Assembly (NCBI RefSeq): GCF_000151315.2
Contig: NW_011887303.1
Span: 376,141-440,140 of the forward strand
Length of the DNA: 64,000 bases
Direction of reading: 5' to 3'
Source of the DNA: Capsaspora owczarzaki ATCC 30864
Taxonomy: Eukaryota; Opisthokonta; Filasterea
Below the pieces are notes generated by a model, which worked only from the letters and a program-made list of their open reading frames with translations, had not been told where the DNA came from and did not search any database. The position numbers and the translations under genes were made by a program. Shown here in pieces: positions 23,813 through 64,000 of the stretch. Each line of letters opens with the position of its first letter. Position 1 is the stretch's first letter.

Positions 23813-23854
<42 letters not shown>

Positions 23855-25724: not shown

Positions 25725-26158
25725 CGCTTCAAAAACCTGTTGTGTGACTGTATGATGAAGGGGAAAAATGGGAGAACTGAGCTGTGTGTATCATTGACAT
25801 GCCCAAGTCTACTGTACATACAGTCAGAGAAACGATAGAAAAACAAAAAAAAAAGGCTCAAAGACAAAATTCTGCCAAAAAGCTCAGAAATGGTGATTTT
25901 TTGGGGTCGTCCGTCAGTCTGAGCATCATGATACTAATAATAATGATGATGATGACAATGATGACAATGATGGTGATCTATTCAATCCCAGTCATCCTTC
26001 CCTTCCGGTTCATTCACTTTTACATTTGACGATTTGACAGCCTTTGCCAAAACGTCCAGCAATCGACTGTCACCACTGCCCACCACTGCCCACCACTGCC
26101 CACCACCACCAGCCCCCTTTGGAACCAAAACTACAAAACGCCCCCGCTGTAAACCAAG
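25725..26158. promoter_or_regulatory. divergent promoter region between the TBC gene and YJU2B
   Basis: 434 bases separate two divergently transcribed genes, so both promoters must lie here or overlap. The stretch has an ATGATG-type tract at 25930-25975 and three tandem copies of CCCACCACTG at 26078-26110 close to the YJU2B start. No TATA box or other known core motif is obvious. Confidence 0.45.
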
Positions 26159-29556: not shown

Positions 29557-32500
29557 ATGGATGCAAGCCAGCGCATCACCATCGGCCTCTGCGCCATGGA
29601 GAAGAAGGTCGGGTTTTCGTGTCTCTTGTTGCTTGCTACAGTCTGTCTCTCTCTCTCGCTCTCTGCCACTGACTTGTCGTTCGCGATCGCATGTGTGAGA
29701 CAGACCAAGTCCAAGCCGATGCGCATGATCATGGAGCGCCTGCGCGTCTGCGGCGACTTTGATCTCATTGCCTTTGATGACAAGTTGAGTTTTTTTGATT
29801 CCTTCTTCATGTTGTTTGCTGGGTTCTTTGGTGAACACGCGCCTGGTCTGGCCTGGAGGGCGGAAACCAAGTCTGCTGCTTGGCCTATCATTGCCATGAA
29901 ACGTTGGCTTGGCTGGGCTGAGGGCGGCGAGCGAGCACGGCGTTGGGATGAGCAGGCTTTCAATCCTGTTCCGATAGCGATCATCACTCACCCAAAACCA
30001 TCATCGCAAAAGCCCAGCAGCATTCTCAGCCTGACTTGACACTGAGAAAGCATGTCAAGAATCGCGTTGATCGCTGTACTGACCGATGCAACCACGAATT
30101 TTTTTTCTGTTTTTGTTTTTGGTTGATTTTTGGCAGCACCATTCTCAATGTGCCTGTGGACCAATGGCCCATCTGCAACTGCTTGGTGGCCTTCTTTTCA
30201 ACGGGATTCCCGCTCCACAAGGCGATGGTATGCTGTTGGCTCAGGACTGGCGAATGTTTCGAAATCTGCGCTCCGAATTTTTCCGACTTGCTCACGTTGG
30301 TTTTTTTCAGGAATACGCCGAGCTGCGTCGTCCGTTCATGCTGAACGAGCTCGAACCGCAAATAGGTTTGCTCGATCGTCGATCGGTGCGTCTCTGTTGT
30401 CGTTGTTGATGATGTTGATGTCTTTCCTCGAGGGATGATTCTCCAACTCACAATGTCTTGCTCAACCTCGCTGTTATTACAGGTCTACGAAACGCTCATC
30501 GACAACGGCATCCCGGTGCCACGTCACGCAGTTCTTGAGCAAGACAAGATTGAAGAAGAGTTGGACGAGCATGAGGATTACATTGAGGTGAGAAAACAAA
30601 GAAAAAAAAAGAAACAAAAAAGAAATCAAACAATTGTGATTGCGGTGCGTTGCTTTTGGCTAATTATCTGGCGTTCTGGCGTGTTTTTAGATTCGTGGAA
30701 TGCGCTTCAACAAGCCGTTCGTCGAAAAGCCCGTCAGTGGCGAAGATCACAACATTTGCATTTACTACCCGCGAAATGCAGGCGGAGGCAGCCAGCGTCT
30801 CTTTAGAAAAGTGGGCGACCGAAGCTCCCAATTCTACCCGGATGTGAACACAGTTCGCCGCAATGGCTCCTACATTTACGAGGTTTGGTCTTGACATTGT
30901 CGGGCCAACGCGTGTCTGGTTTTTTTGCGAGTCTGATTTTTTTTTTGTTGTTGTTGTTGTTGGCAGGATTTTCTTGCGACCGAGGGCACGGATGTCAAGG
31001 TCTACACTGTTGGTCCGATGTACGCTCACGCCGAGGCTCGCAAGTCGCCTGTGGTTGATGGCAAGGTCTTGCGCGACGCGGACGGCAAGGAGATTCGGTA
31101 TGGCATGTCTCTGTGTGCCGCTCCCTCTGACAAAACGTACTCATGTTCTTATTTCCACATTCCAATCGCCCCATTTGCCCCCCCCCTCCCCTTGTTTTCT
31201 TTTTTCCCCTTTGATCCGAAAGCTTCCCGATCATGCTGACTCCAGAAGAAAAGGACATGGCGCGCAAAGTGTGCAGCGCGTTCCGCCAGATGGTCTGCGG
31301 ATTTGATCTCTTGCGCACTGGCGGCCGCTCGTTTGTGTGCGACGTGAACGGCTGGAGCTTTGTCAAGAGCTCTTCCAAGTATTACGACGATTGTGCCGCG
31401 GTTTTGCGCGATCTGATTCTGCTGAACATGGCACCGAGTCGGCTGAACATTAATCGGCTGCCGCGCGGTGGCCACCGCACGCTGTCCATTCCCGAGTCGT
31501 CGCTCACCGAAAGCGACAAGGCATACCTTGCTGGGCTGGATCTGGAGGGAGGCGAGGACTCTGGCACCACGACGCCTCCCCTCGTCGGCAGCAGCGCCAT
31601 CTCGTCCCCGGCTCATGGCGGCAGTGGAACGACCACGCCTGGCGCCATTGGATCGGGCACCCCTTCGACATCGCGCCGCGAGCTCGACCCGCTGACGGGC
31701 TCCGGCTCGATCTGTGGCACGAGCGCCGAAGAGCTGCGCTGCGTGATTGCCGTCATCCGGCATGGCGACCGCACTCCCAAGCAAAAGCTCAAAATGCTCG
31801 TCACCAACGACAAGTTTTTGCACTTTTTCGCAAAGTACAGCGACGACAACAAGACAGAGCTCAAGCTCAAGACGGCCGTTCAGCTGCAAGAGCTGCTGGA
31901 TGTTACGCGTTCGCTTTTGCAGCAGCACTCTGGCGACGACGACTCTGACATTGAAGAGCGCTTTGACAAGCTCGTGCAGATGAAGGCGGTGCTCGAGAAG
32001 GGCGGCCACTTTTCTGGCATCAACCGCAAGGTCCAGCTCAAGCCTTTGCGCTGGGTCAAGCGCTCCAAGCGCACCAATGCTGGCGCCGAGTTCAGCGACG
32101 CACAAGAAGCGTCGACCGAGTCTGTTGCCGAGGCTCTGCTCATTCTGAAATGGGGCGGCGAACTTACGCACGCAGGCCGCGTCCAAGCGGAGATGCTTGG
32201 TCACACATTCCGCGAAGATTTGTATCCGGGCGAAGGTAGCGGCCTGCTCCGCCTCCACGCCACCTACCGTCATGACTTGAAGATTTACTCCTCGGACGAA
32301 GGCCGTGTCCAGGTGACGGCGGCTGCGTTCACCAAGGGCTTGCTCGAGCTTGAGGGTGAGCTCACACCCATTCTCATCTCGCTTGTTCGCAAGGACAAGG
32401 CAGCCATCAAGCTGCTCGATGACGCATCTGGCGCGAACGAGGACGTTGCAGAAGTCAAGCAGAACATTCACGCACAAATGTCGATCGACAAGCGCTTTGA

Positions 32501-33963
32501 TCGCGAGATGATTGAACAGGCTGTTCCCACATTGTCGCAGTCCATGGTGCGCTCGCTGCAGCTTGTTCGCAATCCGCGTCAAATGTGCCTGCGCATTCAC
32601 CGCCTGATCCAGGCCGTCACCGATCAGCTGCGCGACTTGATTGCCGCGGCAACTCCCGAGGAGCGAAGCGGCATTGACTCGCTCTGCAACGGAGAGACGT
32701 TGTCCTTGATGCACAAGCGCTGGGAGAAGCTGCTGCGCGACTTTTTCAACAAAAAGAAGGCCAAGTTCGACTTGAGCAAGATTCCCGACATTTACGATTG
32801 TGCCAAGTACGACGTGCTGCACAATCGCCATCTGAGCATCAAGAACATGCGAGAGCTGTACATTTGCACCAAAGCAATGGCCGATTTCGTCATTCCGAGC
32901 GAATACGGCATGACCTGGGAAGAGAAGGTGCGGATAGGCAGCAGCATTTGCGCCAACTTGTGCTCCAAGATCCTGGCCGATCTTGGCATCGCAAGCACTC
33001 CGCCAGAGGTGCCTGCGGCAGCTTCAGTGGCTCCCGTTGTGTGTGGCGGTTTGTCCGTCCCCATTGGGGCAGACGTACCTGCACCGCCAAACCCGCCCGT
33101 CGCTCCGACTCCCCCTTCTTCTCGTCCCCTCGGCGCACCCGCTGCTGTTTCCTCGGGCCCGTCCACTGGCTCGCCGTCATCCGGGTCCAGCACCGGCGCT
33201 TCTTCTGGAACGGACGCGTCCGTCGACGGCGTTGGGGCTCCTCCCCCGCCAACCCCGCCGCTGCTGCGAGGATTGCAGTCCCAGACGAGCATGATGGCTG
33301 GTGGCAGCAGCATTTCCACGCCCACGAGCATGACCGCTGCAGCACAATCCGTGTCCTTCTTCCCCACCGAAACCGTGCATCGTCTCAACTCGAGGTATGT
33401 GACCAACATCAAGACCCCCGAGCGCCAGGTCCGTTCTCGTTTGTACTTTACGTCCGAGTCGCACATGCATTCGTTGCTGAATGTGCTGCGGTTTTCGAGC
33501 ATGCGGCACAGCGAGGTATGTCCCAATCCACGAGTCATATGTGTTTTTTTTTTTCGCTGTTTCTCCGATGTTGTTTTTGCTGCAATTCTCACGTTTCCTC
33601 GGACTCTTTGTTGTTTGCTGGATGGCGTGGGTGGTGCTCTTTTGCAATGGATAGGAGTGGCGCGATAGCATGACCAAGCTGAGCGCAACTTCGGAGCTGG
33701 ATTACCTGACTCACATCGTGTTTCGTCTCTACGAGCGCTTTGATGTCGATCCTTCCCTTCCAGACCGTTTCCGCATCGAGCTCATGTTCAGTCCGGGTGC
33801 GGTCAAGGTCACCGAGGCGCCGGACGACACGCACGTTGTTCCTGTTGCGCCAACCATGACCCTCAACTCGTCCATCACCCTGCAAGAGATGGAAGAAGTG
33901 CTGGCGAGCGCAACTCGTCAACACTGGGAGAACAAGGAAGCCGAGCAGCCAGCTACTGTTTGA
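29557..33963 (+). CDS. PPIP5K: Inositol hexakisphosphate/diphosphoinositol kinase (VIP1/PPIP5K)
   Basis: Nine exons (29557-29607, 29704-29783, 30137-30227, 30311-30385, 30483-30587, 30691-30882, 30967-31097, 31223-33515, 33655-33963), all in phase, give 1108 residues. The N-terminal ATP-grasp kinase is clear: [96 protein letters not shown]. The C-terminal half is a histidine-acid-phosphatase-like domain starting at R421-H-G-D-R-T-P, with [12 protein letters not shown]-type helices and the late HSE|EWRDSM junction across the last intron. The kinase adds a phosphate at position 1 of InsP6 or 5-InsP7 to make inositol pyrophosphates; the phosphatase half removes it. About 130 residues of Pro/Ser/Thr/Gly-rich sequence (33000-33370) interrupt the phosphatase half, probably a disordered loop. 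Confidence 0.95.
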
Positions 33964-36186: not shown

Positions 36187-37319
36187 GAGAAAAACTCTGA
36201 GCGCACTCTGAGAACGAAGAGAAATGGAAAAAAATAAAAAGGACTGAGACAAAGTATTAGTGATAAAAATGATGGGATCAAATCACCTGATGAGCATCGT
36301 CCAACTTTGAGAGATCGACGTATGGGGTTGTGCATTGCGACGTAACGAACGAAGGCGATCGACCCCACCATTTCGCTTCCACGACGCTAGAAATTCAAAG
36401 TCAGACGAGTCGGGCAAGTCTACCAGTGACTTTTTTGTTGATTCAGAGTGGCAGCTCAACGGAGCTCATTGAGTTGGTACAGTAACGAGAGGTACCTTTC
36501 TGTTTTCTCATTGTCATTGCATTCGCTTTTGATTCACCTCATTTTCACTCTTCATTCTTCATTCTTCCATCTTTCCTTCCTTCACTTTAATTTTTTTGTA
36601 TGTCACTTGAAATTCTCACCTCCGCTCAGCAAAGGCGGGCTTGCTCCCCATACGAGACTTTGACATGTCCTTTTTGTTCTCTCTCTCCCGTCCCCTTCTT
36701 TCCTCGCTCTTCTCTCACTCTCTCTCTCTCTCTCTCTCTCAACAAAATCCCCTTCCCCCTTTCCCCTTCCCCTCTTCATGTTGCTGCAGCGACGGCAACT
36801 CAGCCACTCCTTGCAAAACCGAGCGGTTCGCTGCGAATTTATTATCATTTTTATTTTATTATTTTTTATTTTATTTTTCGATGGACGAACTCTCGTCTCG
36901 TCTCGTTTCGTCTCGTTTGTTGGAACTTTTGTTCTCTGTTTTCTCATCGCAGTTCTATTTTTTCACTCGTTTCGTTCGTTGTTCGCGTCTCAGCTTCAAA
37001 ATCGTAGGACGATCAAACAAAAAAAAAAAAAAAAAAAAAAGAAAAAAAAAAGAGGAAAAATTTGAATTTGCATTTTGGATTCAACTGTTAAAAAAAAAAA
37101 ATCAAAAAAAAAAAAAAAAAACAACCAATACGTTTTTCAATGGAAGACCTTTTTTTTTTTTTTTTTTTTTTTTTTTTCCTGTTGACTTTTTGTATTGAGT
37201 TTTTAACGTTTTTCCCCCTCCTTTTTGTTTTCTTTGACAGACAAACAACCGAACAAACAACCCAAAACAAGAAGTCAGTTTTATCATCATCATCATCTCC
37301 ATTTTGTTCTCTGTGGCGA
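36187..37319. promoter_or_regulatory. divergent intergenic region rich in pyrimidine and A/T runs
   Basis: About 1.1 kb between the divergently read alpha-galactosidase and RapGAP genes. From 36480 on, the plus strand is strongly C/T-rich, with a CT repeat at 36718-36739, A runs at 37019-37040, 37090-37120 and a T run of about 27 at 37149-37177. Such sense-strand pyrimidine richness is typical of the leaders in this window. No gene is seen. Confidence 0.5.
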
Positions 37320-38483
37320 ATGAACCCGCGACACAGCCGGAGCAGCGGCGAAATTGATCTCGTTGGAGCAGCCGCGCCGAGGTCCTCCTCACCGAGCACC
37401 AGCACCAGCGGCACCAACCCACTCGCCCTCGCTGCGTCTGCTGGTAGTACTGCTGGTAGTGCTGGTAGTACTGCTGGTAGTACTGCTGGTAGTGCGCGTG
37501 GGACGGCGAGCGCAGGGACACCGACCCAGGCAACGAGCTCCTCGTCCTCTAGCAACGGCTCAACCACTACCACTGCCACTCCGACTCCGACGCACCCCGG
37601 ACGCGTCTCGTCGCCAGCCGTGCTCCTGACGTCCGCTTTGCCATCCGCCATCGGAGGCGGGGCTGCTGCAGCGTCGGTGACGACGGCCGCTGCGCTCGAC
37701 CACGCTCAAAACCACCAGAATGACTCAGCCGCAACCACAGACATGGCTGCTGCTGGTGGCTCTGCTGCTGCTGCTGCTGGGACTGCTGCTGGCGGAGGGT
37801 TTGTACGCACGTCGGGCATCACGGGACCGCGGCGAAACAGCAACAACCGGTCCTCACTGCGCGTCCACTCGCAGCTCTATGAGAAGGACCCGCTCGCCGC
37901 ACTGCAGCAGCAGCAGCAGAGCAGCATGCGCAGCTCACACTCGTCGTCAAGCGTCAATGTTCGGGAAAAGAGCGAGCGGCGCATCTCCATGATGGACACG
38001 GTCTCAATCATCAACGATGGCGGCAACAGCAGCAGCCAGAGCAAAGACTCCTCCTCGTCGGGCCTGTCCTCACCCGTGTCGCGGTCGCGAACCAGCAGCA
38101 CCTCGTCGTCCAACCCGGCGCTCAACCGCTCGGGATCGGCGAACAACGTGGCGCAGCAGCAGCTGCGGTCGTCAGGCAACTCCAGCCAGCGCAATTCCAT
38201 GCTCTTCTCGTCCGAAGACGAACTCGACGGTTCGAAATCAGCCAGCGCAGCGGGACAGTTCTTTTTGATGCGAACACACTCGTCTCAAGGCCTGATCACA
38301 CCGGGTGATCCGTCATCCAGTCGCTCTGGTGGTGGTGGTGGTGGCGCACCTGCCAGCGGAGCCCCTCCACCGAGCCGGTTGTTGAACCGGTTCTTGTCCC
38401 AGAACAACCTCGCAGCGCGGCACTTACCTGGCGACGACGAGCTCAACACCACCATGTCGGACGATACAACTGATTATTCCGAC

Positions 38484-38515
<32 letters not shown>

Positions 38516-38573
38516 CGACGACAATGAGGACGACGACGACGACGACGACGATGAAGAGGACGACGACGATGAC

Positions 38574-38604
<31 letters not shown>

Positions 38605-41600
38605 GCACCAGTGATTCCGCTGGCTCAGACTACGAGGGTGAGCAAGCCACTCCGTCCAGTGCCAAGTTTTTCTACTTTGACACTGAGATTAACGACACGG
38701 AAGAGTCGCTCACCGACCCTGTCGACGTGCCAGTCACGAGCAACGAGCCAAACCGATTGGCTGTCGAGTCGCCCGAAAGCAGTCTCAAGAACAAGCCTCG
38801 GAATCGCAGCTTTGGCGAAACAACCTCGGTCGCAGATGCAATCAAACGCATGTCCGGCACGGAAGACAGCCACTCGGATGGCGGCTACGGTAGCGACACC
38901 TCGCTCAGCTCGCTGCCAGCCACACTGGTGACCAACTGCGCCAATTTTGTCAACGAAGTCGCGCCAGGCAAGCCTCGGTCTCTTTCCTCTAGCGGCTCAA
39001 CAAAGAGCATGCGCCGCGCGCTCTCATTGAAGGTGGGCAGCGCTTCCTCCCTGAGCTCTACGCCGTCATTCTCAGAAGCCACCTTGTTGTCATTCGAGTT
39101 GGCCGATCCCACTGGCAATTACTTCCGCAAGCACTTTTATGGCAAAGAGCATGAGACGTACGCCGGCACCGATCCCACCCTCGGCCCTGTCGTCCTGTCT
39201 GTACTTCAAGAGTCGGTCGACAAGGTTGCCGCCAAGCAGAATTTCCGCATCGTTGTTCGTAGTGCAGAGGTAAATCGAAAAACAAAATTGGTGCAAAAGG
39301 CTCTTAGCTCTGAACATCCCAACCTCCAATTATTGTTGTCTTTGTTTTGCTCATTTGTCTGGTTGTTTTTGTTTCTTCCCCCTTCCATTTCTTCCGTCCA
39401 CTCTCACCTTGCTCGTTTTTTCCAGCAACCCGACATCCGAACAACTTGTGCGGTTCCTCTTTCATCAGCAACAAGCCTAACACGCAAGGCTGTGTCCAAG
39501 TATGTGATTTCAACAATGGCGCCCTCAATCGACTTTTCCAAACTGCGGGCCATTTCTGGGGCCAAATTGCACGATCGGCTGCTTCAATTAGACGAGCAAT
39601 TGGTAAGTCCAATTCGCCTCTCCCCCTTTGTGTTTTCTTTTCGTCGCTTTCACACCTTTTGGCTGGCTGGTCCGGTCTGGCGGTTGTGGCTCAACCCTTT
39701 TTTTTTTGTTGCTGACTCATCCTTGCCCAACCCTTCTTCTTCAGTTTGTGCGGCAGTACAAGTTTGGCATTTTGTATTGCAAGGCGGGCCAGAGCACCGA
39801 GGATGAGATGTACAATAACGGTATGGTTTTTTTCACATGTCATTTTTTTTCTTTCCCCTTGCTTTCGGTTTTGGCCTGCGTTTGATGCTTACTGTGTGTT
39901 CCAATTCCCCTTTTGACCGCGTTTCTCAGAAACCGCCGGTCCGGCTTTCACTGAATTCCTTGATACAATCGGCACCACTGTTCCACTCCTCAACCACGCC
40001 AAGTTCCGTGGCGGTTTGGATGTGAAATGTATGTTTGTTCCTTGCTCGTGGGTTGCTGTTCTCGTTGGTGTCCACGCACTTGTGTCCTGTTTCGCGGCTT
40101 GCTCACACACGTGTCTAATGCACCACCACTCTCGCTGCAGCGTCCACAACTGGCGATACTTCGGTCTTTGCCGAGTTTGAGGATTGTGAAATCATGTTTC
40201 ATGTTTCCACAATGCTGCCATTCACACCCAAGGACACGCAGCAGCTTCAACGCAAGCGACACATCGGCAATGACATTGTCACAATCATCTTCCTCGAGCC
40301 CGGTGCCAAGCCGTTTAGCCCGAAGGTTATTCGATCCCATTTCCAGCACGTCTTTATCGTCGTTCAGCCAATCAACCCGAACTCTGCCACAACAGAATAC
40401 ACGTATGTCGCAATTTCGAAGGAGACGGTGTTTCTCCCCCCCCCACCACCTTGTCGGCTGCACTCACACAAAAATGCTTGCTTGCAGAGTTGCAACGGTG
40501 CGATTCGAGGACGTGCCCAAGTTTGGGCCTCCTCCGCCTTCGTCTGGCACCTTCCCGAAAGGCCTGCGGTTCCGCGAGTTCCTTTTGACAAAGCGTGAGT
40601 TGAACTTTACAGACTGGTTTGGTCATTTTTCGGGGGTGCTCGTCGTGCTCGTCGTGCTCACATTTTGCTCCTCCTTGTCCCATCTCTTTGTGTCTCCTCT
40701 TCACAGTTATCAATGCCGAAAACGCAGCCTATCGATCATCCAAGTTCTCGGCCATGAACAAGCGAACCAAAGTCTCGCTGCTCACCGACATTGTCAAGAC
40801 GTACACCTTGGACGCCGGCGCGCCAGTGTCGCCCACAGTCCCTGGCAAGGACGACGGCCAACTCTTCCGCAGCAAGTCTGCTCGGTTTGCACGGTCTGTG
40901 TTGCGCATCGCCAAGAGCGGGCCGGCCGAGCCTGGCGTTCCACCTCCCACTCCTGGCGTGCGCCAACGCACTGACTGGCTGGTCAAGGTATGTGGTTTTC
41001 GAGTTGATGTTTTGGGCCATTTTGGTTCAAGTGATTAACTGGACTGGTTGGTTCCCTTTGTGTGTCTGTGTTTTTGTTTTCCTGGTTGCTTTTGTAGGTC
41101 AAGGATCCGAAGAATGAGGCCAGCCTGAGTGCCACCTTCACCATCACGCCAGAGACCATGACCTTGCGGCACGCTGTGTCTAATGTACGTTCGACAACCG
41201 CGAGCGATTCTTGTATGGATTTGCGAGCTAACCTGTTGTTTTGCTGCTCCTTTCTCCCGCCACGAACAGGATATTCTGGTGGCCTGGCCAACGGCTTCGA
41301 CTTCAGGCTGGGTTCTTATTCCTCTTGGGTGAGTTTTGTTCATTCAGTCGGATTTTTTTGGTCCCTCATTCCCTCCCAAACAAAAAAATTACTCATCAAA
41401 TTCTCAACCGATGCTTTGCTTTACAGCATCAAAGTGTCGTATGGCAAAGGAGCAACGCAGATTCTGCAAACCACCGATGCAGCCTCCATCCAAAACCAGC
41501 TCGAGCAATGCCTGGGCAAAGCCATGGCCGCCGCCAAAGACAATCCCGACAGCATCCTCACTGCGTGGTACTCGAAAAAGAAGAAGGGAGACAAGAAAAA

Positions 41601-51100: not shown

Positions 51101-52654
51101 GGGCGGGGCGCTGATTTTGAAAACACAGATGGCAAGTTCTTACCTGGCCACATTGTCTGCAAACAAGCACTTGTCGAAGCTGACCAGCGAGTTCTGCCCT
51201 TCCAGGTAAACCGCCCCGCCTTGATCGATGCTGCGGATAAAAACCAAGTCAGCAACTGACCTCATCAACACTCGGACACGAGGACGACACTACTTACAGC
51301 GCAGTGTTGCGGAGGAAGTTCACAGCGGAGAAGACTGGAGCCAAGCCATAGTCGACAACGTGATCGATTTCCAGGTGAAGAGCTCCGCTCTTGCTGGCCT
51401 GACAAGCCTCGAAAGTGGAGTTGCGAATGGACAACCCATACGCAGGACCATTTGCGAGATAGGGAGCCCCCACTACGAGCTGGAGTGCGCCTCCTTGGCC
51501 GTTCACAGCCGAGCATTCGGAGAAAACACTTGTGGAAATGCTCACAAGTGCTGCTACATCAATCGCCAACGCACCTCCATCGCCGTTCGATGTGTTGCAG
51601 CTCAAAAAGTTGCTTCCGGAAATGTCCACGACTCCCACGTCCGAAATCGCCAGTGCGCCGCCGTTGCCGTCCGACGTGCCGCAGTGCGAAAAGTTGCTTC
51701 CGGAAATGGTAATGTTCTTGCTGGTCAACTCCAAATCGATTGCCCCGCCTTCATGCAAAGCAAAGCAAGACACGAAGCGAGTCTCACGAATGTCCACCCA
51801 AGATGCTGCTGAAGCGCCAATAGCGCCTCCGCTCGCTTTGGGAGCCGTGCAATTGTTGAACACTGTGCTCGACACGTTGAGGGTGCTCGCATGATGGAGA
51901 TTGAAAAGAGACCTCACATACAATGCTCCGCCGTTGGAATTGTGTGAGATGCAATGGGAGAAGTTGCTGTTCCACACGGTCACCAGAAGCGGCGTGCCGA
52001 CCGCTCCTTCAGCAAGAAATCCGCCTCCAGCTAGGCGTCTGTCAATATGATGTGCAACGTAACTCACAGTCAGGTGCAATGTTGTTTCGAATCAAAGCCT
52101 TTTTCTTTGCAAAACAAACAGATGGATGCTTACGAGCTGCAAGAGGTAAAGTCGGAGTTGGCAACCTGCACAGATCGGGTTCCTAAAAGCGTGTCAACCC
52201 AAAAACCTCCGCCATTGCTCGCTGTGGAGCAGCCCTCGAAACGAACAGAGTCAACCAGAACCGAGCCTGTTGGAGTGTTGTACTTGTAAGCGATCGCCAC
52301 ACAGCCTCCGTTGCCTTCCGTTGCTCCGTTGCGAAAGGTCAAGTGCCGAAGGACAACATTATTGGAAGTGATGTTCACAATGCGAGAGAGACCAGCACCA
52401 TCGAGCACAGTGTCGCTGCTAGTAAGCCCAGTCCCGCGCAGTTCAATTGGTTCGGCAAGCCGGTTAATTTCAAGTTCCGTGCCGCTCAAGGTGATGGTCC
52501 CGGCAGCGATACAGACGACAGTGTTTGCTACGTTGTCGAGCGCAGAGCGAAGATCTTCCGAAGTTGAGACAGTCACAGAGCAGGGGCTTTGCGCGGCGAC
52601 TTGGACGACGAACAGCACAAGCAGGAGCGCAGCTCCCAAATTCATGAAACGCAT
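48116..52654 (-). CDS. Beta-helix receptor-like protein with Ala/Ser stalk and ten-tyrosine tail
   Basis: Five exons (52134-52654, 51298-52038, 51144-51230, 50787-51036, 48116-50695), all GT-AG and in phase, give 1392 residues. A signal peptide (LGAALLLVLFVVQVAAQS) leads into about 540 residues of right-handed beta-helix repeats of the Pmp/pectate-lyase kind: GGALYVRS, NCTAPKASGGAIGAS, FSHCGTSDGNGGALAIS, FLSCNTSNGDGGALAID. Next is a short Cys-rich part (FCETCNAPGWNTFLC), a stalk of about 500 residues made of x-Ala-Ser triplets (635-1135), and one membrane span at about 1165-1189 (IIIGILAGVVVLVVLVLTIV) followed by HRRRQGR. The tail of about 200 residues has ten tyrosines, eight in Yxx(V/L/I): YESV, YERL, YEAV, YAAI, YVEI, YAEV, YAQV, YATI. 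This is a type I receptor layout with a phosphotyrosine-type tail. I know no described family with this combination. Confidence 0.85.
48890..50389 (-). repeat. coding repeat of Ala-Ser triplets
   Basis: About 1.5 kb of the last exon of the beta-helix receptor gene codes for x-Ala-Ser triplets. Above the three-residue period there is a longer unit: FASAASGASTVAAS and AAEVAASIASAAS recur several times at roughly 35-60 residue spacing. This suggests growth by duplication of longer blocks. The repeat is open in several frames on both strands, which makes long shadow frames. Confidence 0.88.
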
Positions 52655-54189: not shown

Positions 54190-57100
54190 TCAGTAGGTGC
54201 GTCGCGCAAGAGAATCGTGAGCAAGCTGGTTTAGAAGCAGCTCGCGTTGATCGTCGCCGAGACGATGGACAAGGCCAAGAATGGCCTGCAGCGTCACTGA
54301 CTCGCTGGGCTCATCGGAAGAACCAAGCGATGATGCATCGGCCACGGCTGCAGCGTTGAGTGCCGACATGGCAATTTGGCTCGGAGTGGCTGCGACTCCG
54401 TCGCCTGCCGCCGCGTAGCCAGCACCGCCGCTAGCGAGGCTCGAGACTTTGCGCATCAAGCTGCTGTGAGAGGGCTGCCGTGTGAGGGCGCTACTCGTGG
54501 GAACGGGACTGACGTGCCCAGTCGCAGCAATCCGCTCGCTGCTCCCGCTCAAATGGTGGCTCAGCGGCGTGGACGTGGGCGAATGCGAAGCTGAAGACTG
54601 CAAGTACGCCACAGATGCATGGGTAAATCCTGTAGGGATGGAGCCCGTTGAAGTGGAGGCGTGCAAATGTGGGGCAGGCGGGGACGTTGCAAGAAGATGG
54701 ATGGACGCACGACGACTGCTTGTATGGCTGCTTGAGAGCGCGCTCGCTCCTTCGGTAGACGGTGTTCCTGCTAAAGAAAGCAAACTAGCTCCTACAGCGG
54801 CCGAGCCAGCCGCAGCCGCCGCCGCCGCCGCAGCAGCAGCAGCAGCAGCAGCAGCTGAAGATCCAGCGACAGCAGTATTGGACCCTCCAGCACCACCGCC
54901 GCCAGGCAGCTCGCCGCGGAGCAACCGTGCAGCAGCATTAATCACCGCGGCAACAGGCCCTTCAGACACAGGATGTGCAATGTTCGCATGCGACAGTGCA
55001 CTGAAGGATGACGAGGGTGACAAGACCGACGCTGGGGTGTCGTCGTCTCCGCTTCCGTCCACGTCACCACCGCCGGTCAGGACGAGGGCGTTGCTGGACG
55101 AATTCATGCTTCTCAGGACGCCATCCGACGAGACCATTGCGCGAACGCTCTGGTCGACGTATGCCTCGCGCAGGTGAGTGACGTTCTGATCGAGCTGCGT
55201 CCGTCGACGGTCAAACCACTCTGACAGCAACTTGTCCTGTTTCCAGTTGCACACGCTGCCTTCGAATTCAAGGAACCACCGCCCGAGCACAGCTGTTGCA
55301 CCAGACGGGGTCAGAGACGGATTTGCCTTGAGAATATCTGCAAGAACGCGGGTCTCGCTCAGTCGGCGGCGCAACCGCCAGTACAAGAAGCGACGAGCGG
55401 ACTTCCATTGGATCACATCAGTCACCATTGCCTTCTCCTGCAGACGGTACGGCGTGTCGTGCAAGTCCGTAAAGGCCGAGGCCAGCGCCAAAAACGCTGG
55501 AGAAATCTCATCTTCTCGTTGTCGCAAACGCGTGAGCAGCGTCTGGACTTCGGCGTCTTGGTCGCTTGTGGGCGGCATGGCAGAGAGACTGGTGTTGCTG
55601 TGAGCCAACTGGTGCAGGCGGAGCAGTTGCTGCGGTCCTTGGCTGGGTGACGAGGCGACTGGTCCCGAGGTAGCCGCGGCTGCTGCGGCCTTCGTCTCGG
55701 CCGTCAGCTCGTGCAATTGCGCGACAAGCTCTTGGTAGACGGGATCGAGTCGCTGCATCGCATTCAGCAGGTCGCGACGTCGGAAGCACATCTCAGCGGT
55801 GACATCGGAGGTGTTGACGCCCGCGCGGGAACGCTCGTCCGCAAACAGCTGCAAGAGGTTGGGATTGACGTTGCAGTCAAACAACGACCAAGTGGTGCCG
55901 CGCAGTTCGCCATACGGAGGAATGTAGACAAAGATGGGCTGGTGGTACTGTCGGAGCTCGTCCACGATCGCCGACGAAAACCGCAGCACTTCTTCGTGAA
56001 TGTCGTGCAACGAGCCGGCAAGGCCCTTCCAATTGGCCAAGATGAACAGGGGCAGTCGCTCACGGTCAAAGTCGCGGATGCTGTCAACCAGCTTGCGAGA
56101 GCCCGCGCTATCGAGAACATGGCCATGGCGGATGCGCATCTGCATTTCACTGGCGGGGTTGAGCGGGTCGGCAGGCACGTGGACCTCAACAGAGCGCGGG
56201 TCGACCGCCACCACACCAGCAGCAATCCCTCCAAGTCGAGCTCGACCCACGACCACGCCGCTGACCCACGACGCCAACGTCTCAACAAACGAATCGCGAT
56301 CAAAGAGACCGCTTTCCCACCGCCCAGCACCAGTACCTGCAGCAGCCGGGTTGGATGCGTCGTCTGCGGCGGCTGATGGTTTGGAAGTCGCACCAAGCCC
56401 CATCATTCCGCCCGGCCCACTCACCGGCGGGGCAAACGGAGACGACCCGACCGCGGGCGAGCCCAGCACATTGTTGTTGCCCGGAGAGTTCACGCTCGAG
56501 CCGAATACGTGGGGTGATGCAAAGGATGGGAAGTTTGGCGAGCTCGTAAGCGACGAGAATGCGGAGGGGGTGGACGCCGCCAGACCGTTGTTGCGAGGGT
56601 AAGGGAGCTCAAAACTGCCGCCCGCCGCAGCCGACGACGCAAAGGCGCCAGATTCGCTTCCACCGGACTGAGTTCCAGCAAGACCTGCGTTTGCTACAGC
56701 GGAGGCGGATACGGTGGAGGAGGAGCGAAGAACGCGGCCGCGAATGAGGTGTCGCGGATCGTATTGTCCGTGTGCAGGCGGCATGAACTCGACATCGCGC
56801 TCGATCGTGTCATGATGGCACGGAGCAATCATTGGCTCGCGCGCCGCTGTAATCACTGGCGGTACAAAGCTGAGCCATTTGAGCAGCGCCACGATGCCCG
56901 AAAAGTCGTCTTCCACAACGACGTGGGCAATGCCAGCCATTGACAAGACATCACTGCCACCCAGCTGCATGTCGGCATTGTAGACGCCACGACCAAAGAG
57001 CGTGTTTAGGGCACTGGCTGTGGCGACGAGAATCTCTCCAGACCCCTCGGTAGCCGGCTTCAGCGACGTGTCGTGGATGGTTCCGCGCGCGCCTGGCTCG

Positions 57101-60100
57101 GCTTCGGCAGCACTGGCGTCTCCAGCGCGGGCCTGCGTGTTTTGCACCGAGGATGAGTTGACGGGCTGCACGAATGCACCGTGGGTGCCAGGATGCCGCG
57201 AGCGCGGATCCACCTGGACAACACGGCGGCCCATGCGAGCCAGCTGCGCGCCCAACCCGACGGCCTTGCAGGTGACCATGGTGATGGTAAAGACGTCGTC
57301 GTAGGCTCGCGCAATCGAGGCGAGTTGCGAGGCGCTCAATGACTCGACGCCCAGGCCGTCTGCCAAGCCCACAATGTCGGTGAGCTTGTAGCGGAACTCG
57401 CCGCCTTCCTCGAGCAGAACGGCACGCATGGTTGTTCCGGCAGCAGAGAGCCGCTTGTAATCGGCGGGAGTCAAGTAAATGTATCGGAAGCCACGCTGGG
57501 GTTGCCCGTCCTTCACCCATGCAACGCGGAAGCAGTCCTTCACTTCTTGAGCAACACCGACGCGTGCTCCGGACGTCGCAGCAAGATACAGGAACGGCAA
57601 GCCATGTTCGCGCGCGTAATCGACAGCCTGCTGGTAAAAGTGGACCTCGCGCGGACCAAACGAGCCGTTCAAGAGCGTCACGTCGTTGGCCACAACGACC
57701 AGCTCACGCCCGCGTGCCATGCATTCTGGCGTGCGAACAAACATGCGCCACGCCACAAGCGTGGTGGTATTTGCACCTGGTTCGCGATGGACCAGTTCGA
57801 GCCCGTTCCCCTGGGCGTTGAGCACCAATTCGGACACTTGGAAGAGCTCCGAGGAGGGCTCCGCCTCGCGAGCGGCCTGGGTCGCGGATGCAGTGGCAGA
57901 GTGTGCGAGTGCCGTTGCAAGCAGCGACTGCGCATGGGACGGCGCAGCTTGGGTCATGAGGTAGGAAGACGAACCCAGGCCTGGCGAGGCGCTGTAGACG
58001 GACGGGTCCGACATGGCAAAGCTGCCGCCGTTGCTGTTGTCACCGGATGAGCCACCAGAGCTGGCGATGTTGCCGTGGCCGGAACCCAATGCATCCCCGT
58101 ACCGGCTCGACTGCGACGACAATGGCAAGTGGCCAGAAAAGCTGCCAGACAATGGGCGCGAGGTCAACGAGAAGGCGCTGCTGCCAAACGACGAAGCCGA
58201 TCGCGGAGTTCCCACCGAGCTGGTCACACTCAGCCCGTCCAAGTTGACGCTGTGCCTGGGAGTCGTCGAGAGGGAGGCCGGTCCCGAAGACGCAAAACCA
58301 CTGCCTTCGTAAGGGGAGGAGAAATCAGGCACGGATCCCGCGGCTGTCTCGGCCCGCTTATTCACGGCCTTGGTCAAACTCGCGTTCAAATCTCGGACGA
58401 CGTGATGGAAAATGTCTGGAAAATCGTAGACATAGGTCGTTCCCAGAGATTGGGCAAGGTAGCGCTTGGTTTGGAGGTGATCCTTCGTCACGTAGCGCGT
58501 CATGATGTCGTGGCCGTGCAGCGGGCCCTTTTCGTGGCCAACCGACTCGTACACGTTCTTGTCCGAGCCGGGCACGGAGCGTTCGCGGTACATGTGGATG
58601 GACAGCATGTATCCTGACGTGTTGGACATGAAGACGCGAATCGGCATGGCAGCGTCGCCGCGGCCAGTGCTCACGTTCAAGCGCATCTCCGCTTCAAGGA
58701 TGCGCAACTTCCACAGTCGCCGCCCGTGGCGGGAGATCAGCAGCCGCAGTCGCGGAAGCAGCTTGATCGGATCAAGAACAACAACGGGCTGGAACGAGAA
58801 GAAGATGTGGTTGCGGTCCGTGTTCGCGTACAGCGGATTGACAAAGGCAATCTCCAGCTCGTTCAGAACCTCGTTGATTTGTCGCTCGCCTTCCAAAAAG
58901 AAAAAGTCAATGGGCGTCTGTACCGAGATGACGTCTGGCGAGCGGATGATGGAGCGCAAGAAGAATCGGCGGTCGTTGGGTTCGTTTTTGGCCACACCAA
59001 AGTAGAGGTGCTGACCGAGGTTTCTAGAGTAAGATTTTGAGGGGAAGGCGGGGAGGAGAAGGCGGGGGGGGGGTGCAATCACGACGAGTCGAGTGAGTTG
59101 CTACAAACAAACAAAACCAACAAAAAAAAAAGCACGAGAGAAGCAAAACCAGGTTGAATCTAGTTCGCTCACCCGGTGGGAATCACGTTGATGTGATAGT
59201 TTGACAGACGGAAGAGCTCCAGTTGGAATGCAAGACCGGGCTCCACGTGGCGGTACAAGATATCCTCCGCATAATCGAGGCGCTCGCGGAAGGAAAAGTA
59301 CCGAGTGTGTTCGGTCGAGGTGGGACCTAGCTTGAGAATAAACGTAATTCGCCGAATATCATGCGCCACCAGAAGGATTTTGAGGCTTTGAACAGTCGAG
59401 GCAAACATGGCCGACAGCTGCTGATCCAGAGCGGCACTCTGCTCAGTCAGCTCTTCATCGGAAATCCAGTGAGTGGCCGTGGCGTCGAGCCGCTTGGCCC
59501 CCTCTGGTCCAAGGTCCACCGACCGCAAAGCAATGTTGATCACATTCAGGGGTTCGTTGTTTTCTGTCAACGAGACCAGAACATCGAAATCAGCACCATA
59601 AGCGGCTTGAAGCCAAGTTGCTTCCAACAAAAATCATCTCTGCAAGCAACATCCATCGTGAAAAAGCGCCGAGCCACCCTACCAATATCACGCGGCGCAT
59701 CAAATCCTGGCGGACGATGCGGGAACTGCTCGAGTAGCGCGCCAAACCGCGCGAACGCAACCATGACGCCAGTGCGGAGGTAGGATTGCTGCAGCTTGTC
59801 GTCCACATGCAGAGAAACGGCATCGGATGCGATCGTTCGCTTCAAACCCAGGACAGAGTACATTAAAGCATGCGGATGATTGGACGGCAGCAAAAAGCTC
59901 CATTTGACGACGGGACGGTTGTCAAGGTACTCGCTCCAGACGCGCTTCAATCGGAACGCAGTGTACGAGCGGCGGACATAGACTTCCAGAGCGGCGGCCT
60001 GAATGGACGGCTTGGTGTGGAAAAAGAAGGCAAACAGGACGTCATAGCACGAGGTTGACTGAACTACGAGCGCCTGCAGCTTGCGCGCGCAGTCCTCTGC

Positions 60101-60347
60101 ATGCATACTGTCCACAGCATCTTCGAGATAGAGCTCCATGTCAAGTCGACGCCGTTCAAAGGAAGGCAGATGGGTGAGCACCAGAATTCGGCGAGCACGG
60201 ACGGCGACACGCGAGTTGGCCACATCCACAAGATCAGCAAGCTGAGACAGGATTGCCTTGTCCTCAGGCGTGATGGAAGTCGAGTCTTTGAGGTGCAATT
60301 GATCCTGAAGCAGGGACGAGAGGCAGCCCGAGATACACGCACACACA

Positions 60348-60382
<35 letters not shown>

Positions 60383-63300
60383 AAGAAAGAAAGAAAAGGA
60401 GTTGAGTTTCCCAAAAAACCATTCGCACAAAACACTGACATGACGCTTCCTTCCTCTTCAAAGAAAAAAAACAAAAAACCACTCACCATGAGAGCCAATG
60501 CGAGTTGGTACTTGGTCTTGCTTTGACGCGAAAATGCCATGTCCATCGCATGCGCAATGCCAGTCGTCTCCTTGATCTTGTAGATGCACTCGTTGTCACT
60601 GCGGCCATAGTTGGCAAAGATGCTTTCGACATCGAGATAGGCGCGCAGCAGAGAATGAATGGTGGCTTTTGTGTGGCCTCGAGAGCCTGTTCGGTAGCGC
60701 TGAATAATCTGGATGATGGGCTCGACAAGCATGTAAAAATGATCGCGTTCAGTCTTGTTTCGAATGTGCGCTGCGTGGCTGTCGACAACGAGTGCAATTT
60801 GTTGAACGGGGAACATGGAAAACATGGACGTGTAGCCGGCAGAGTACGAGGCGACAGTGCGTCCGATCGCACTTTCCACTTCGGGAGGGATGCGTCCTTC
60901 GAGCGACGACAGGACATCGTTCAGCTCGAGCAACGGGAGTTGCGGGTTTGCCAGACTGGACATCATGCGCTGCACGTGTCGATCAATGTACGAGCGGGCA
61001 AACGGCTCAGGAATGTCGTAGCCGAGCATAATGTTGGACAACGAGCGCAGTGCAGCGCGGAAGCTCTGGTGCACCTTGCCTCCGTGGACGGCTCGCAGGT
61101 CGTTGTGCGCAAAGCAACCCGTGAACGGCGTGATTACGGCATTGTTGGCAATGCCGGTCTCGTCCAAGCCGCTGTTTTGCGGTTGTTGGGGCTGCGAGCC
61201 TACCAGCGTGGTTCCGCCGGTATTGGAGGAGGATGAATTGGATGCCGAGTGAGCGGCCGCATCGTCCCCAATCGCAAACATGGAGGACTTGTTGCCTCCC
61301 TCACTTTCGACAGAAATACCTCCCTGGCTGTCGACGGACAGATTGGGCAAATCGATTGCCCCTGCTGCTGGAGATGGAGAGGCTGCAATCGAGGTGCCGG
61401 AGGACTGGAGCGGCGAGATGGACGCGGCGTTCCATGCGCTCAGCATGGCAGACGAAGCAGAGGCCGAAACCGTGTTGGACGACATGAGGGCGGACAAGTC
61501 CATGCCTTTGGGTACAAAGAAGGAGCAGCTGCGACCATCGACCGTAATCCGGCAGCCGTTGGCCTCCTCTTTGAGTAAGGTGACGTGGCTATTGCCATTG
61601 TAGATGACGAGACGTGTGCCGTCGGGCAGGGTGTGCATGACAACCTCCACCCACTCGCCGTTCATGACCACAAAGTAAGAGTCGGATCCGGTTTGCGTCA
61701 CAGTCAGCGCGAAAGATTGGTGACAGGGAGCAGCGGCACTACTTCCATTCAGACTTGCATCCAGGGAAGGTGCAGCGAGACCGTCGCCAGAGATGCCAGA
61801 GATTCCAGAGATTCCAGAGATTGGAGTGGATGGAGTGGTAACGCCAGCAGCGGGAACAAAGACGCCTTCTTCGCCGACCAGCTCGATAGAGACCGAGTTG
61901 CGCAGATATTCCTTGTTGAGCATCTGCCCGCGCTTCATGGCTCGAAGGTACAAGTCGCGCATTTCGCTCATGGCGCTCTCCGCGAGCTGCAGGCCGGCAC
62001 AAAGCACAGCCAGCAGCGTGTCCGGCCGGTCTGCCGTGAATCGCTCGGCCATGACAGAATCAAGCCAAGTAACATCAACGTCGTTGTCGCGAAAGTTGGG
62101 TGACTCGAGCAGCTTGACCAGATTCTCGACGACAGAGGAAAATGTCCCACGCACAGACGCCTCTTTCAGAGCGACCACAAGGTGTCTACAAAAAAAAAAA
62201 AAAAAAAAAGAAGAGATCATTGAATGAGTGTGAGAGAGGGAAATCAACGCGAAAAACCAAGAACAAATCGGAGCGAGATGAGAGCGGGGACATGAATCAT
62301 CGCTCCTCTCCTGAAAAACACTTGGAAAAGACAAACAAACTTGCAAGAAACCATCTACACCTACCTGCGTGCTTGCTCGCGAGTGTCGCCCCAGGCAAAA
62401 ACTTGGGCAAACGGCGCACTGGAGGTTTCGCGCCCAACGGAGGCCACGTTTGACTCGTGAGCGAGCGCGCTCGAAAAATAACCCCAAACATGCGCAGAGC
62501 GGAAGCTGAGATCGTGAGCAGTGGTGGGGCTGTCGTTACGGCTGCTTTCTTGGAGGATGCGGGCCGAAATCACGTGGCCGTACGGCAACGGGTTGGGAAT
62601 GATGGTTTTTGGCTTGCCTCCCTGTGCCGTGATGGCAGCCATGGCAGCGCTGGCAGCCTTTTCGCGCTCGCGGCGATCGAAAACAACGGTGCTCGAGCCA
62701 TGAGGCGCCTCGCCATACAAGACCCGGATTTCCGGGATGCGGTGCAGCGGAATGCCCATGGCGATTTGAAGCTGGGCGGCAGGAAGATTGGTGCGCGAGA
62801 TGATTTCGGCGAGCGGATGTTCCACGGGCAGATGCGGTTGGATTTCATAAAAGAAGAACTGTTTGGTTTGCGGGTTGTAGAGGAACTCGACTGTGACTGC
62901 GCTGGTGCATCCAACCTGGCAGAAAAAAACAAAACAAAACAAAAAAAAAGATTCAAAGTTGCAAGCAGTCAGTGAGTGATCAAATGCGAAAAAGAAAGAC
63001 TCGGCGGGATTTCTTGTGCATCGCCAGCTAGAAACAGCACTTTCATACCAAACGCAACAAGCGAACGGCAGCACGCTCCATGTCCGTGAAAATCTCGGGC
63101 GGGACAATCGATGCAGGCGCTTCCTCGATCAACTTGCGGTTGCGGAGCTGAATGGACGAATCGCACCCAAAAATGGACACAATTTGGCCGTAAACATCGG
63201 CCAACAGCAGAATCTGGACGTTGCGAGCCTTCTTGGCCACCTGCATGATGCAAATAGCGCTTCCGGGCACATCGCCTAACGACAAGAAGGGAAAAAAAAG

Positions 63301-63977
63301 GTGCAGGTTGGAACTTTCATCTCCACCGAATCAACATCCAAACCCCCACACCCCTCCCCGTTGGAAGCAACAACACAGCACAGAAAGGAATCAAATCAAC
63401 TCGGGTTGCCAACCTTGCACTTGACGGAAAGCAGGGCCAAACTCTTCAGCATTTTCAACCCGACGGACACCTTGACCATTCGTGCCCTCGGCTGCGCGAA
63501 TCATGACAGGAAACCCGACACGCTTCGCTACGTACAGGCCTTGGTCAACGCTGTTGACAGTGCCCCGAGAATACACCTCGTCCGGGACGGCAATCAACAC
63601 GCGCTGCTGTTGCGGCTGAGCGGCGATTTGCGGGAGCTGCACACGCAACGACGAGCCGCCCCATGGCAGCGTCGGAATGCCTGCAGACTGTGCCACAATA
63701 GTGGCTGTGATTTTGTCGCCAAGAGAGCGCATGGCGTGGGCTGGGGGACCGATGAAGATGGTGCGCGAGCGACCCAGTGCTTCTGGGAGGCGGGGGTTGT
63801 CTGCAGCGTGGTCCCAGCCAGCCCAGACGGCGTCATTTCCCGTACGCTCGGCAATGTCAACAATCAAATCCACATTGGCGTAGTTGTTGTTGGGTGCTCC
63901 GCCGGAAACCGGGACGTACTGATCCGCCATCTTGATGTACTCTGCGTTCGCCTTGATGTCCTCTGGGGTTGCGAGCA
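54190..63977 (-). CDS. Acetyl-CoA carboxylase homologue lacking the biotin carrier segment (likely pseudoenzyme), 5' end outside window
   Basis: Seven exons in the window, right to left: 63414-63977, 63049-63275, 62365-62915, 60487-62185, 59683-60304, 59173-59605, 54190-59023. All phases agree; about 2975 residues are seen and the first exons lie beyond 64000. The order is that of eukaryotic ACC: biotin carboxylase (NNNYANVDLIVDIAERTG, GDKITATIVAQSAGIPTLPW), BT region, central domains (LPLLELNDVLSSLEGRIPP, QQIALVVDSHAAH, YRTGSRGHTKA) and carboxyltransferase (YVTKDHLQTKRYLAQSLGTT, TSGARVGVAQEVKD, VVGRARLGGIAAGVVAVD). Key residues differ: the carboxylase glycine loop reads AEGTNGQGVR, RRHQK is LRNRK, and the catalytic NxRxQVEH is QPHLPVEH. 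After DGRSCSFFVPKGMDL the biotinyl domain with its MKM lysine is absent; about 110 low-complexity residues stand there. Carboxyltransferase GFSGG is GLAGS. Acetyl-CoA carboxylation by this protein alone seems unlikely. Confidence 0.9.
60343..60392. repeat. (AC)n plus A run in an ACC-like gene intron
   Basis: About nine AC units followed by an A run of about 24 within the intron between exons 60487-62185 and 59683-60304. On the sense (minus) strand this is a T run followed by GT units just upstream of the acceptor. Confidence 0.85.
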
Positions 63978-64000
63978 CTGTGAAATGAATTGCATGCTGT

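What the first reader, a model, noticed from the sequence alone, without database searches (positions are those of the whole stretch)
54190..63977. Full-length ACC homologue without a biotin carrier segment and with a broken carboxylase active site
Seen: the complete multi-domain ACC order is present and in frame, but the biotinyl domain is missing. The frame passes directly from DGRSCSFFVPKGMDL (about 61500) to Ser/Ala-rich sequence and then to the conserved TPFTGCF block (about 61130); no MKM motif occurs. Known: in E. coli biotin carboxylase numbering, K159, H209, H236, N290, R292 and Q294 are part of the ATP, bicarbonate and biotin sites. Here they read R, N, N, Q, H and P (63480-63510, 63127-63230, 62815-62850), and the glycine loop GGGGKG is GTNGQG. 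Inference: an ACC-derived pseudoenzyme, perhaps a scaffold or allosteric partner of the true ACC, or a carboxyltransferase fed by another biotin protein. I know no described family of this kind.
Basis: partly seen in the sequence, partly recalled or inferred. Interest (0 to 1): 0.92.

Follow-up and report, generated by a model that had tools for sequence, protein, structure and literature searches.

The report
Catalytically dead acetyl-CoA carboxylase twin
A single-celled relative of animals carries, beside its normal fat-making enzyme acetyl-CoA carboxylase, a second full-length copy that kept the scaffold but lost the biotin arm and key residues of both active sites, so it probably works as a partner or regulator rather than as an enzyme.

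Summary
The window lies in a Capsaspora owczarzaki genome (inferred from its canonical ACC). The predicted gene has eight exons, the first just outside the window, and encodes 3,120 residues in ACC domain order. Ser/Ala-rich sequence replaces the biotinyl domain; no biotinylation-like motif occurs in six frames. At 24 active-site positions, picked after seeing the alignment, 17 are substituted; 348 of 349 other rows have at most two. The non-catalytic central region behaves like that of a real ACC: 46 of 51 invariant columns kept, inside the range of 24 real ACCs, while every other domain falls below it. An intact canonical ACC lies about 236 kb away. No stops, saturated pS, and pN/pS 0.30-0.74 except in the replaced biotinyl segment (1.00) point to selection, not decay. 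Best reading: an ACC pseudoenzyme, perhaps a hetero-oligomeric regulator of the true ACC. Role, expression and orthologues remain unshown. The papers searched listed no ACC pseudoenzyme.

The parts
63414..63996 (-). exon 2 (part of BC N-domain and start of ATP-grasp); exon 1 lies outside the window at 64140-64538 = L005:4281-4679
   Evidence: GC-AG junction before it, phase 0; Biotin_carb_N 1e-24 on the spliced protein
63496..63498 (-). K159 equivalent read as R (residue 300)
   Evidence: K in 25 of 25 aligned canonicals with a residue; K in 346 of 347 rows with a residue
63469..63486 (-). glycine loop GGGGKG read as GTNGQG (residues 304-309)
63049..63275 (-). exon 3 (ATP-grasp)
63220..63222 (-). 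H209 equivalent read as N (residue 346); RHLEVQ read as RNVQIL
63139..63141 (-). H236 equivalent read as N (residue 373); QRRHQK read as QLRNRK (K238 equivalent kept)
62365..62915 (-). exon 4 (end of ATP-grasp, degraded BC C-domain)
   Evidence: Biotin_carb_C 28.8 bits, under the 32.4 cut-off; canonical 86.4
62826..62840 (-). ELNPRLQVEH read as EIQPHLPVEH: N290>Q, R292>H, Q294>P (residues 429, 431, 433)
60487..62185 (-). exon 5: end of BC, BT domain with insert, replaced biotinyl segment, start of central region, in one open exon
61141..61494 (-). Ser/Ala-rich segment in place of the biotinyl (BCCP) domain, residues 818-935
   Evidence: pN/pS 1.00 against the canonical here
59683..60304 (-). 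exon 6 (ACC central region)
59173..59620 (-). exon 7 (ACC central region)
58516..61131 (-). non-catalytic ACC central region (residues 939-1679, introns included)
   Evidence: PF08326 563.8 bits; 46 of 51 invariant columns kept
54190..59023 (-). exon 8: end of central region, CT N- and C-halves, Ser/Ala-rich C-terminal extension, stop
55135..57846 (-). degraded carboxyltransferase (residues 1903-2806)
   Evidence: Carboxyl_trans 284.8 bits against 514.9 in the canonical
57310..57336 (-). CT N-half loop: canonical NLRGSGMIAGETS region reads SLSASQL--ASIA (two residues deleted, glycines lost)
56011..56028 (-). CT C-half: NWRGFSGG read as NWKGLAGS (residues 2509-2514 are KGLAGS)
   Evidence: R at this column in 345 of 345 rows with a residue, last G likewise
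55888..55908 (-). CT C-half: ELRGGAW read as ELRGTTW (residues 2549-2555)

Best explanation
A diverged paralogue of the Capsaspora ACC that has become a full-length pseudoenzyme: carrier domain gone, key residues of the BC and CT sites lost, domain order and central region kept under selection (shown by sequence). Inferred: it still assembles like an ACC and works by pairing with, or co-polymerising with, the canonical ACC encoded about 236 kb away. Eukaryotic CT active sites form at the CT dimer interface with contributions from both protomers, so in a mixed dimer each CT site would contain one damaged half and each mixed BC dimer one damaged subunit. The likeliest effect is to lower or gate malonyl-CoA production when the pseudoenzyme is abundant (a poison or titrating subunit).
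For: Lost chemistry. CT damaged in both halves. Central region kept: 46 of 51 invariant columns (90%), inside the leave-one-out range of 24 real ACCs (lowest 51 of 57, 89%); every other domain lies below its real-ACC minimum, for example ATP-grasp 66 of 94 (lowest real 94 of 99) and CT_C 57 of 83 (lowest real 83 of 88); its identity to 23 references is 92% of the canonical's in the central region, 66-79% in ATP-grasp, BC_C, BT and CT. Central against BC plus CT: Fisher p 0.0035 (46/51 against 253/353); p 0.0014 at columns at least 99% conserved in 349 rows (74/84 against 271/377). Canonical partner in the same genome; the ACC central region matches at two loci only. Selection: pS 0.58-0.70 (saturated), pN/pS 0.30-0.74 except in the replaced biotinyl segment (1.00); codon usage correlation 0.91 with the canonical. 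Composite CT site and need for BC dimers: passages of PMC4833862, passages and section 5 of PMC11735997, passages and introduction of PMC5126230. Two ACC paralogues can mix: ACC1-ACC2 heterodimers, passages of preprint PMC12776311.
Against: The paralogues share only 48% identity over 1971 aligned columns. In plain identity to the canonical the central region (41.5%) is lower than BC_N, ATP-grasp, BC_C and CT; it stands out only against the low conservation this region has in real ACCs. BC_N is also fairly well kept (42 of 51; central against BC_N p 0.39). The protein has Ser/Ala-rich inserts inside CT (about residues 2112-2168) that could hinder dimerisation. BC keeps the K238, E276, E288, E296 and R338 equivalents, so ATP or Mg binding is not excluded. 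Third-position GC is 0.66 against 0.80 in the canonical, so codon selection looks weaker. Dead paralogues can also be activators. The constraint test cannot exclude recent relaxation.
Confidence: 0.42

Rival explanations
1. Positive partner: the dead paralogue hetero-oligomerises with the canonical ACC and is needed for its assembly, filament formation or activation, as the AdoMetDC and DHS dead paralogues and BADC 'glue' do.
For: Central region kept and a canonical partner present. Precedents: prozyme (PMC5201418, passages), DHS dead paralogue (PMC3663545, search listing with abstract start) and BADC as assembly aid (PMC11926652, passages).
Against: The canonical Capsaspora ACC has all ten motifs tested, so nothing in its sequence calls for help. 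A mixed CT dimer would contain damaged halves, which argues for inhibition unless mixing is through BC, the central region or filaments.
Confidence: 0.2
2. Ligand sensor or scaffold with a job outside ACC: the protein keeps a CoA- or nucleotide-binding fold and reports acyl-CoA, ATP or citrate state to other proteins, as CPT1C does for malonyl-CoA.
For: Kept GARIG-position arginine in CT and kept E276, E288, K238 equivalents in BC; long Ser/Ala-rich arms that might bind partners or be phosphorylated (inference); CPT1C precedent (PMC6927751, passages).
Against: Glycine loop, K159, H209 and H236 equivalents of the ATP site and the CT glycine loop are changed, so binding is likely weak. No direct evidence.
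Confidence: 0.2
3. Carboxyltransferase (or other partial reaction) fed by a separate biotin protein.
For: CT keeps most of its length and the GARIG-position arginine.
Against: Both CT halves have lost columns that are otherwise near invariant: R>K and G>S in NWRGFSGG, GG>GT in ELRGG, glycines and two residues of the GSGMIAG loop. The 7 biotin/lipoyl matches in the genome were not each identified, so a free carrier was neither found nor excluded.
Confidence: 0.04
4. A decaying pseudogene.
For: Long branch (0.96 against 0.34 changes per site for the canonical); many losses at conserved sites; no orthologue among the hits listed; lower third-position GC than the canonical.
Against: 3,120 codons without a stop and seven usable introns over a distance with saturated synonymous change; unconstrained drift of only 0.05 changes per site gave a mean of about 13 stops in 20 simulated runs; pN/pS under 1 except in the replaced segment; central region conserved as in real ACCs. 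Caveat: the splice model was chosen for openness.
Confidence: 0.08
5. Assembly or gene-model artefact, for instance a missed biotinyl exon.
For: Splice sites are predicted, with no transcripts; one GC-AG intron and one 62-base intron.
Against: The place of the biotinyl domain lies inside a single 1,699-base open exon; no motif in six frames of the gene; the active-site changes lie inside open exons.
Confidence: 0.02

Closest known systems
Eukaryotic multidomain acetyl-CoA carboxylase (ACC1/ACC2, yeast ACC1/HFA1)
   Same: Domain order BC-BT-[carrier]-central region-CT; 50-52% identity over the BC query to the 120 best hits and 33-40% over aligned parts of the CT query; next to the Capsaspora canonical in the all-domain tree
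   Different: No biotinyl domain; key BC and CT active-site residues lost; long Ser/Ala-rich inserts and tails
BADC proteins of plant plastid ACC (BCCP-like, not biotinylated)
   Same: A non-biotinylated paralogue of an ACC component that regulates or helps assemble the active enzyme (passages of PMC7712654 and PMC11926652)
   Different: BADC is a relative of the carrier subunit alone, lacking its biotinylation motif; here the whole chain is affected and the carrier domain is missing
Trypanosomatid AdoMetDC prozyme and DHS dead paralogue
   Same: Catalytically dead paralogue beside an active one in the same genome (PMC5201418 passages; PMC3663545 listing)
   Different: There partner binding and activation are shown; here only sequence evidence. 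Unrelated enzymes
CPT1C
   Same: Metabolic pseudoenzyme in malonyl-CoA physiology, proposed to act as a sensor (PMC6927751 passages)
   Different: Unrelated protein; ligand binding reported there, unknown here

Membership tests
Active eukaryotic acetyl-CoA carboxylase | BC, BT, central and CT domains in order on one chain | tested here: met
   (Biotin_carb_C under its cut-off, BT in part)
Active eukaryotic acetyl-CoA carboxylase | biotinyl domain with MKM lysine | tested here: not met
Active eukaryotic acetyl-CoA carboxylase | intact BC ATP/bicarbonate/biotin residues | tested here: not met
   K159, glycine loop, H209, H236, N290, R292, Q294 equivalents changed; K238, E276, E288, E296, R338 kept
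Active eukaryotic acetyl-CoA carboxylase | intact CT motifs in both halves | tested here: not met
Active eukaryotic acetyl-CoA carboxylase | homodimer with dimeric BC and CT | not testable with these tools
Pseudoenzyme paralogue | homology to an active enzyme with catalytic residues lost | tested here: met
   17 of 24 positions; activity itself not measured
Pseudoenzyme paralogue | intact paralogue in the same genome | tested here: met
Pseudoenzyme paralogue | kept by selection as a protein | tested here: met
   one genome only, recent relaxation not excluded
Pseudoenzyme paralogue | non-catalytic function shown | not testable with these tools
   needs experiment
BADC | BCCP-like chain without the biotinylation motif | tested here: not met
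   no biotinyl domain match
Processed pseudogene | intronless, stops or frameshifts | tested here: not met
   seven predicted introns, no stop

The most novel reading that the evidence does not exclude
A whole eukaryotic multienzyme duplicated and turned into its own regulator: a full-length dead ACC that co-assembles with the live one, spoils the composite CT sites and mixed BC dimers or tunes filaments, and so sets malonyl-CoA output by the ratio of the two proteins. That would be a control layer on ACC beside phosphorylation and citrate.
Probability: 0.3. Interest if true: 0.82.

Novelty: new variant of a known kind. Interest (0 to 1): 0.62.

Why it matters
ACC makes the committed building block of fatty acids and is a drug and herbicide target. 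Small non-biotinylated partners are known for plant ACC, and dead paralogues regulate other enzymes, but the searches (open-access library, capped listings) showed no report of a complete ACC chain that became a pseudoenzyme. Capsaspora is a close unicellular relative of animals (recalled), so the pair allows a direct test of whether a multienzyme can be regulated by its own dead copy, and of what the ACC scaffold does without catalysis.

Tried and rejected
Orthologue search: BC part (360 hits, best 120 listed) and CT part (368 hits, best 120 listed). The listed names and Pfam sets are those of ordinary ACCs. The top CT hit, P0121 from Durusdinium trenchii, is a partial chain that holds two CT copies; its CT motifs are intact apart from GARIG, which reads GARVG; I did not take it for an orthologue. 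These searches take only proteins of 1,716-5,460 aa and score about 8,000 candidates, so split gene models or transcript fragments of related filastereans could be missed. The protein itself was not among the 120 listed in either.

Listed entries without a biotinyl Pfam hit (P0002, P0059, P0182, P0192; P0121 besides) were checked as possible further cases: the first four keep the five BC motifs tested, so they look like gene-model gaps or ordinary variants. P0059 lacks the exact NWRGFSGG string but has NWRGFSSG.

Tree on BT plus central columns placed the canonical Capsaspora ACC with P0125 (support 84; a EukProt entry I take for Chromosphaera, recalled) rather than with the pseudoenzyme. The all-domain tree joined the two Capsaspora proteins (support 89; 73 in the quick tree). 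So the exact age of the duplication is open. A placement outside the opisthokont ACCs is rejected (AU p 5e-06), with cautions: long branch, odd amino-acid make-up of the pseudoenzyme, and a group named after the first tree was seen.

BT keeps 6 of 9. Left out of the invariant-column count: P0163 and P0198, N-terminally incomplete (kept in the trees).

Paper searches for a known ACC pseudoenzyme: 0 papers; 10, all listed; 6, all listed; 3, all listed; one seen in passages; 113 matched, 30 listed, mostly other senses of 'pseudo-acc'. I judged by titles and abstract starts. One search gave 0 papers; the 15 listed of 416 held no 'Arg1954'.
Full report
WHERE IT IS. The window is contig C12:376141-440140 of a 27.5 Mb genome in 29 contigs. 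An ACC elsewhere on the contig contains, letter for letter, the 2,442-residue protein named acetyl coenzyme A carboxylase alpha of Capsaspora owczarzaki ATCC 30864 (P0232), so the genome is that species or a very close strain.

THE GENE. Reading the - strand from L005 into the window gives eight predicted exons and seven introns of 62-182 bases (six GT-AG, one GC-AG). The spliced frame has 3,120 residues and one stop at the end. Pfam on the spliced protein gives Biotin_carb_N (87.6 bits), the ATP-grasp domain (123.4), Biotin_carb_C under its cut-off (28.8 against 32.4), part of BT (76.7), ACC_central (563.8) and Carboxyl_trans (284.8). P0232, whose model lacks the first BC residues, scores 76.1, 167.2, 86.4, 153.0, 707.6 and 514.9 and also has the biotinyl domain (39.8), which the window protein lacks at E<=1.

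THE MISSING CARRIER. The place of the biotinyl domain lies within exon 5, one open exon, and holds about 118 residues of which 73% are S, T, A, G, P, Q or N. No [AVIL]MK[MLIVQ] occurs in any of six frames across the gene, and none of the 7 biotin/lipoyl matches listed for the genome is here.

THE ACTIVE SITES. The BC nevertheless keeps the equivalents of K238, E276, E288, E296 and R338 (numbering and roles recalled), so it is a mosaic, and the ENPDEGFKP loop of the C-domain is gone. Over 24 positions the protein is substituted at 17. Among 349 other rows, the reference canonical included, 320 have none, 26 have one, 2 have two, and one N-terminally partial entry (P0121) has ten. Gaps are not counted, I picked the positions after seeing the alignment, and the rows are the best hits of three searches, not a sample of all ACCs.

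WHAT IS KEPT. Of columns invariant in 24 complete canonicals the protein keeps 42/51 in BC_N, 66/94 in ATP-grasp, 28/46 in BC_C, 6/9 in BT, 7/18 in the carrier, 46/51 in the central region, 60/79 in CT_N and 57/83 in CT_C. Set against each real ACC left out in turn, the central region lies inside the real range (90%; lowest real 51/57, 89%), and every other domain lies below its real minimum (lowest real: BC_N 51/54, ATP-grasp 94/99, BC_C 46/51, BT 9/10, carrier 18/21, CT_N 79/84, CT_C 83/88). Mean identity to 23 references, as a share of the canonical's, is 0.92 in the central region, 0.90 in BC_N, 0.79 ATP-grasp, 0.66 BC_C, 0.71 BT, 0.35 carrier, 0.73 CT_N and 0.72 CT_C. Central region against BC plus CT gives Fisher p 0.0035, and 0.0014 with columns at least 99% conserved in 349 rows (74/84 against 271/377); central against BC_N alone p 0.39. 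In plain identity to the canonical the central region is not the best part (41.5%, against 69.5, 52.5, 49.0, 44.9 and 46.0% for BC_N, ATP-grasp, BC_C, CT_N and CT_C); real ACCs vary there too. The C-terminal segment VTLQAILGLVHRLGDDQRELLLNQL resembles the canonical C-terminus by eye, after a 265-residue low-complexity stretch.

SELECTION. Against the canonical gene pS is 0.58-0.70 (saturated) and pN 0.20-0.43 in every domain except the replaced carrier segment, where pN equals pS. The tree puts about three quarters of the distance on the pseudoenzyme's branch (0.96 against 0.34), so the constraint cannot come from the canonical side alone. Third-position GC is 0.66, lower than the canonical's 0.80 but above the introns (whole-intron GC 0.39-0.49), and codon usage correlates 0.91 with the canonical. 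A simulation of unconstrained change gives about 13 stops at 0.05 changes per site (20 runs). These are tests on one genome, and the splice model was chosen to be open.

ORIGIN. The ACC central region matches at two loci of the genome, this gene and the canonical, about 236 kb apart on the same strand. The all-domain tree joins the two Capsaspora proteins (support 89; 73 in the quick tree). BT plus central columns alone do not. A position outside opisthokont ACCs is rejected, with the cautions told under Tried and rejected. No orthologue was among the listed hits.

HOW IT PROBABLY WORKS. Shown by sequence: lost catalytic residues, kept architecture, constraint, an intact paralogue. Inferred: pairing with the live enzyme. 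[quoted passage not shown] PMC11735997 section 5), and BC dimerisation is tied to activity (PMC5126230 passages and introduction), where the central region is described as a likely scaffold. A mixed dimer would therefore have a damaged half in each CT site, which makes inhibition the simplest prediction. Mixing of two ACC paralogues is reported for ACC1 and ACC2 (preprint PMC12776311, passages). Precedents run both ways: BADC (inhibitor in some studies, assembly glue in others), prozyme (activator), CPT1C (proposed sensor).

VERDICT. A real and unusual gene; the pseudoenzyme label rests on sequence but firmly, the role is open. Known kind (dead paralogue), new in that a whole ACC chain is affected; the searches listed no other case.

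Noticed in passing
C12:186371-193939 (L006/L007), outside the window: The canonical ACC is one open frame of 2,522 codons, apart from an unread first exon, while its dead paralogue has seven predicted introns. Intron loss or a retro-copied canonical gene would be worth testing.
   Followed up: partly
C12 about 193,800: The public canonical model P0232 starts at an internal methionine and lacks about 40 N-terminal residues of BC that are open and conserved upstream.
   Followed up: partly
window 31215-33668 +: Open frame with a histidine phosphatase domain and a weak, below cut-off ATP-grasp match, as in diphosphoinositol pentakisphosphate kinases (family name recalled).
   Followed up: no
window 5566-7008 +, 14703-16700 -, 22386-25790 -, 37092-39806 +: Several small-GTPase regulator domains in one window: Rap-GAP with CNH, RasGEF, TBC RabGAP, Rap-GAP dimerisation domain.
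   Followed up: no
window 51294-52654 -: Frames with, by eye, a signal-peptide-like start and Asn/Ser/Gly-rich repeats, without a Pfam match at E<=0.001.
   Followed up: no
protein P0121: Predicted Durusdinium trenchii ACC chain holds two very similar CT copies in tandem, possibly a model or assembly error.
   Followed up: partly
alignment column of canonical G2133: 16 of 349 ACC rows have S in place of the first G of the final GG in NWRGFSGG; P0059 from a crane has NWRGFSSG together with VMKI at the biotin site, so the motif strings vary in ordinary ACCs.
   Followed up: partly
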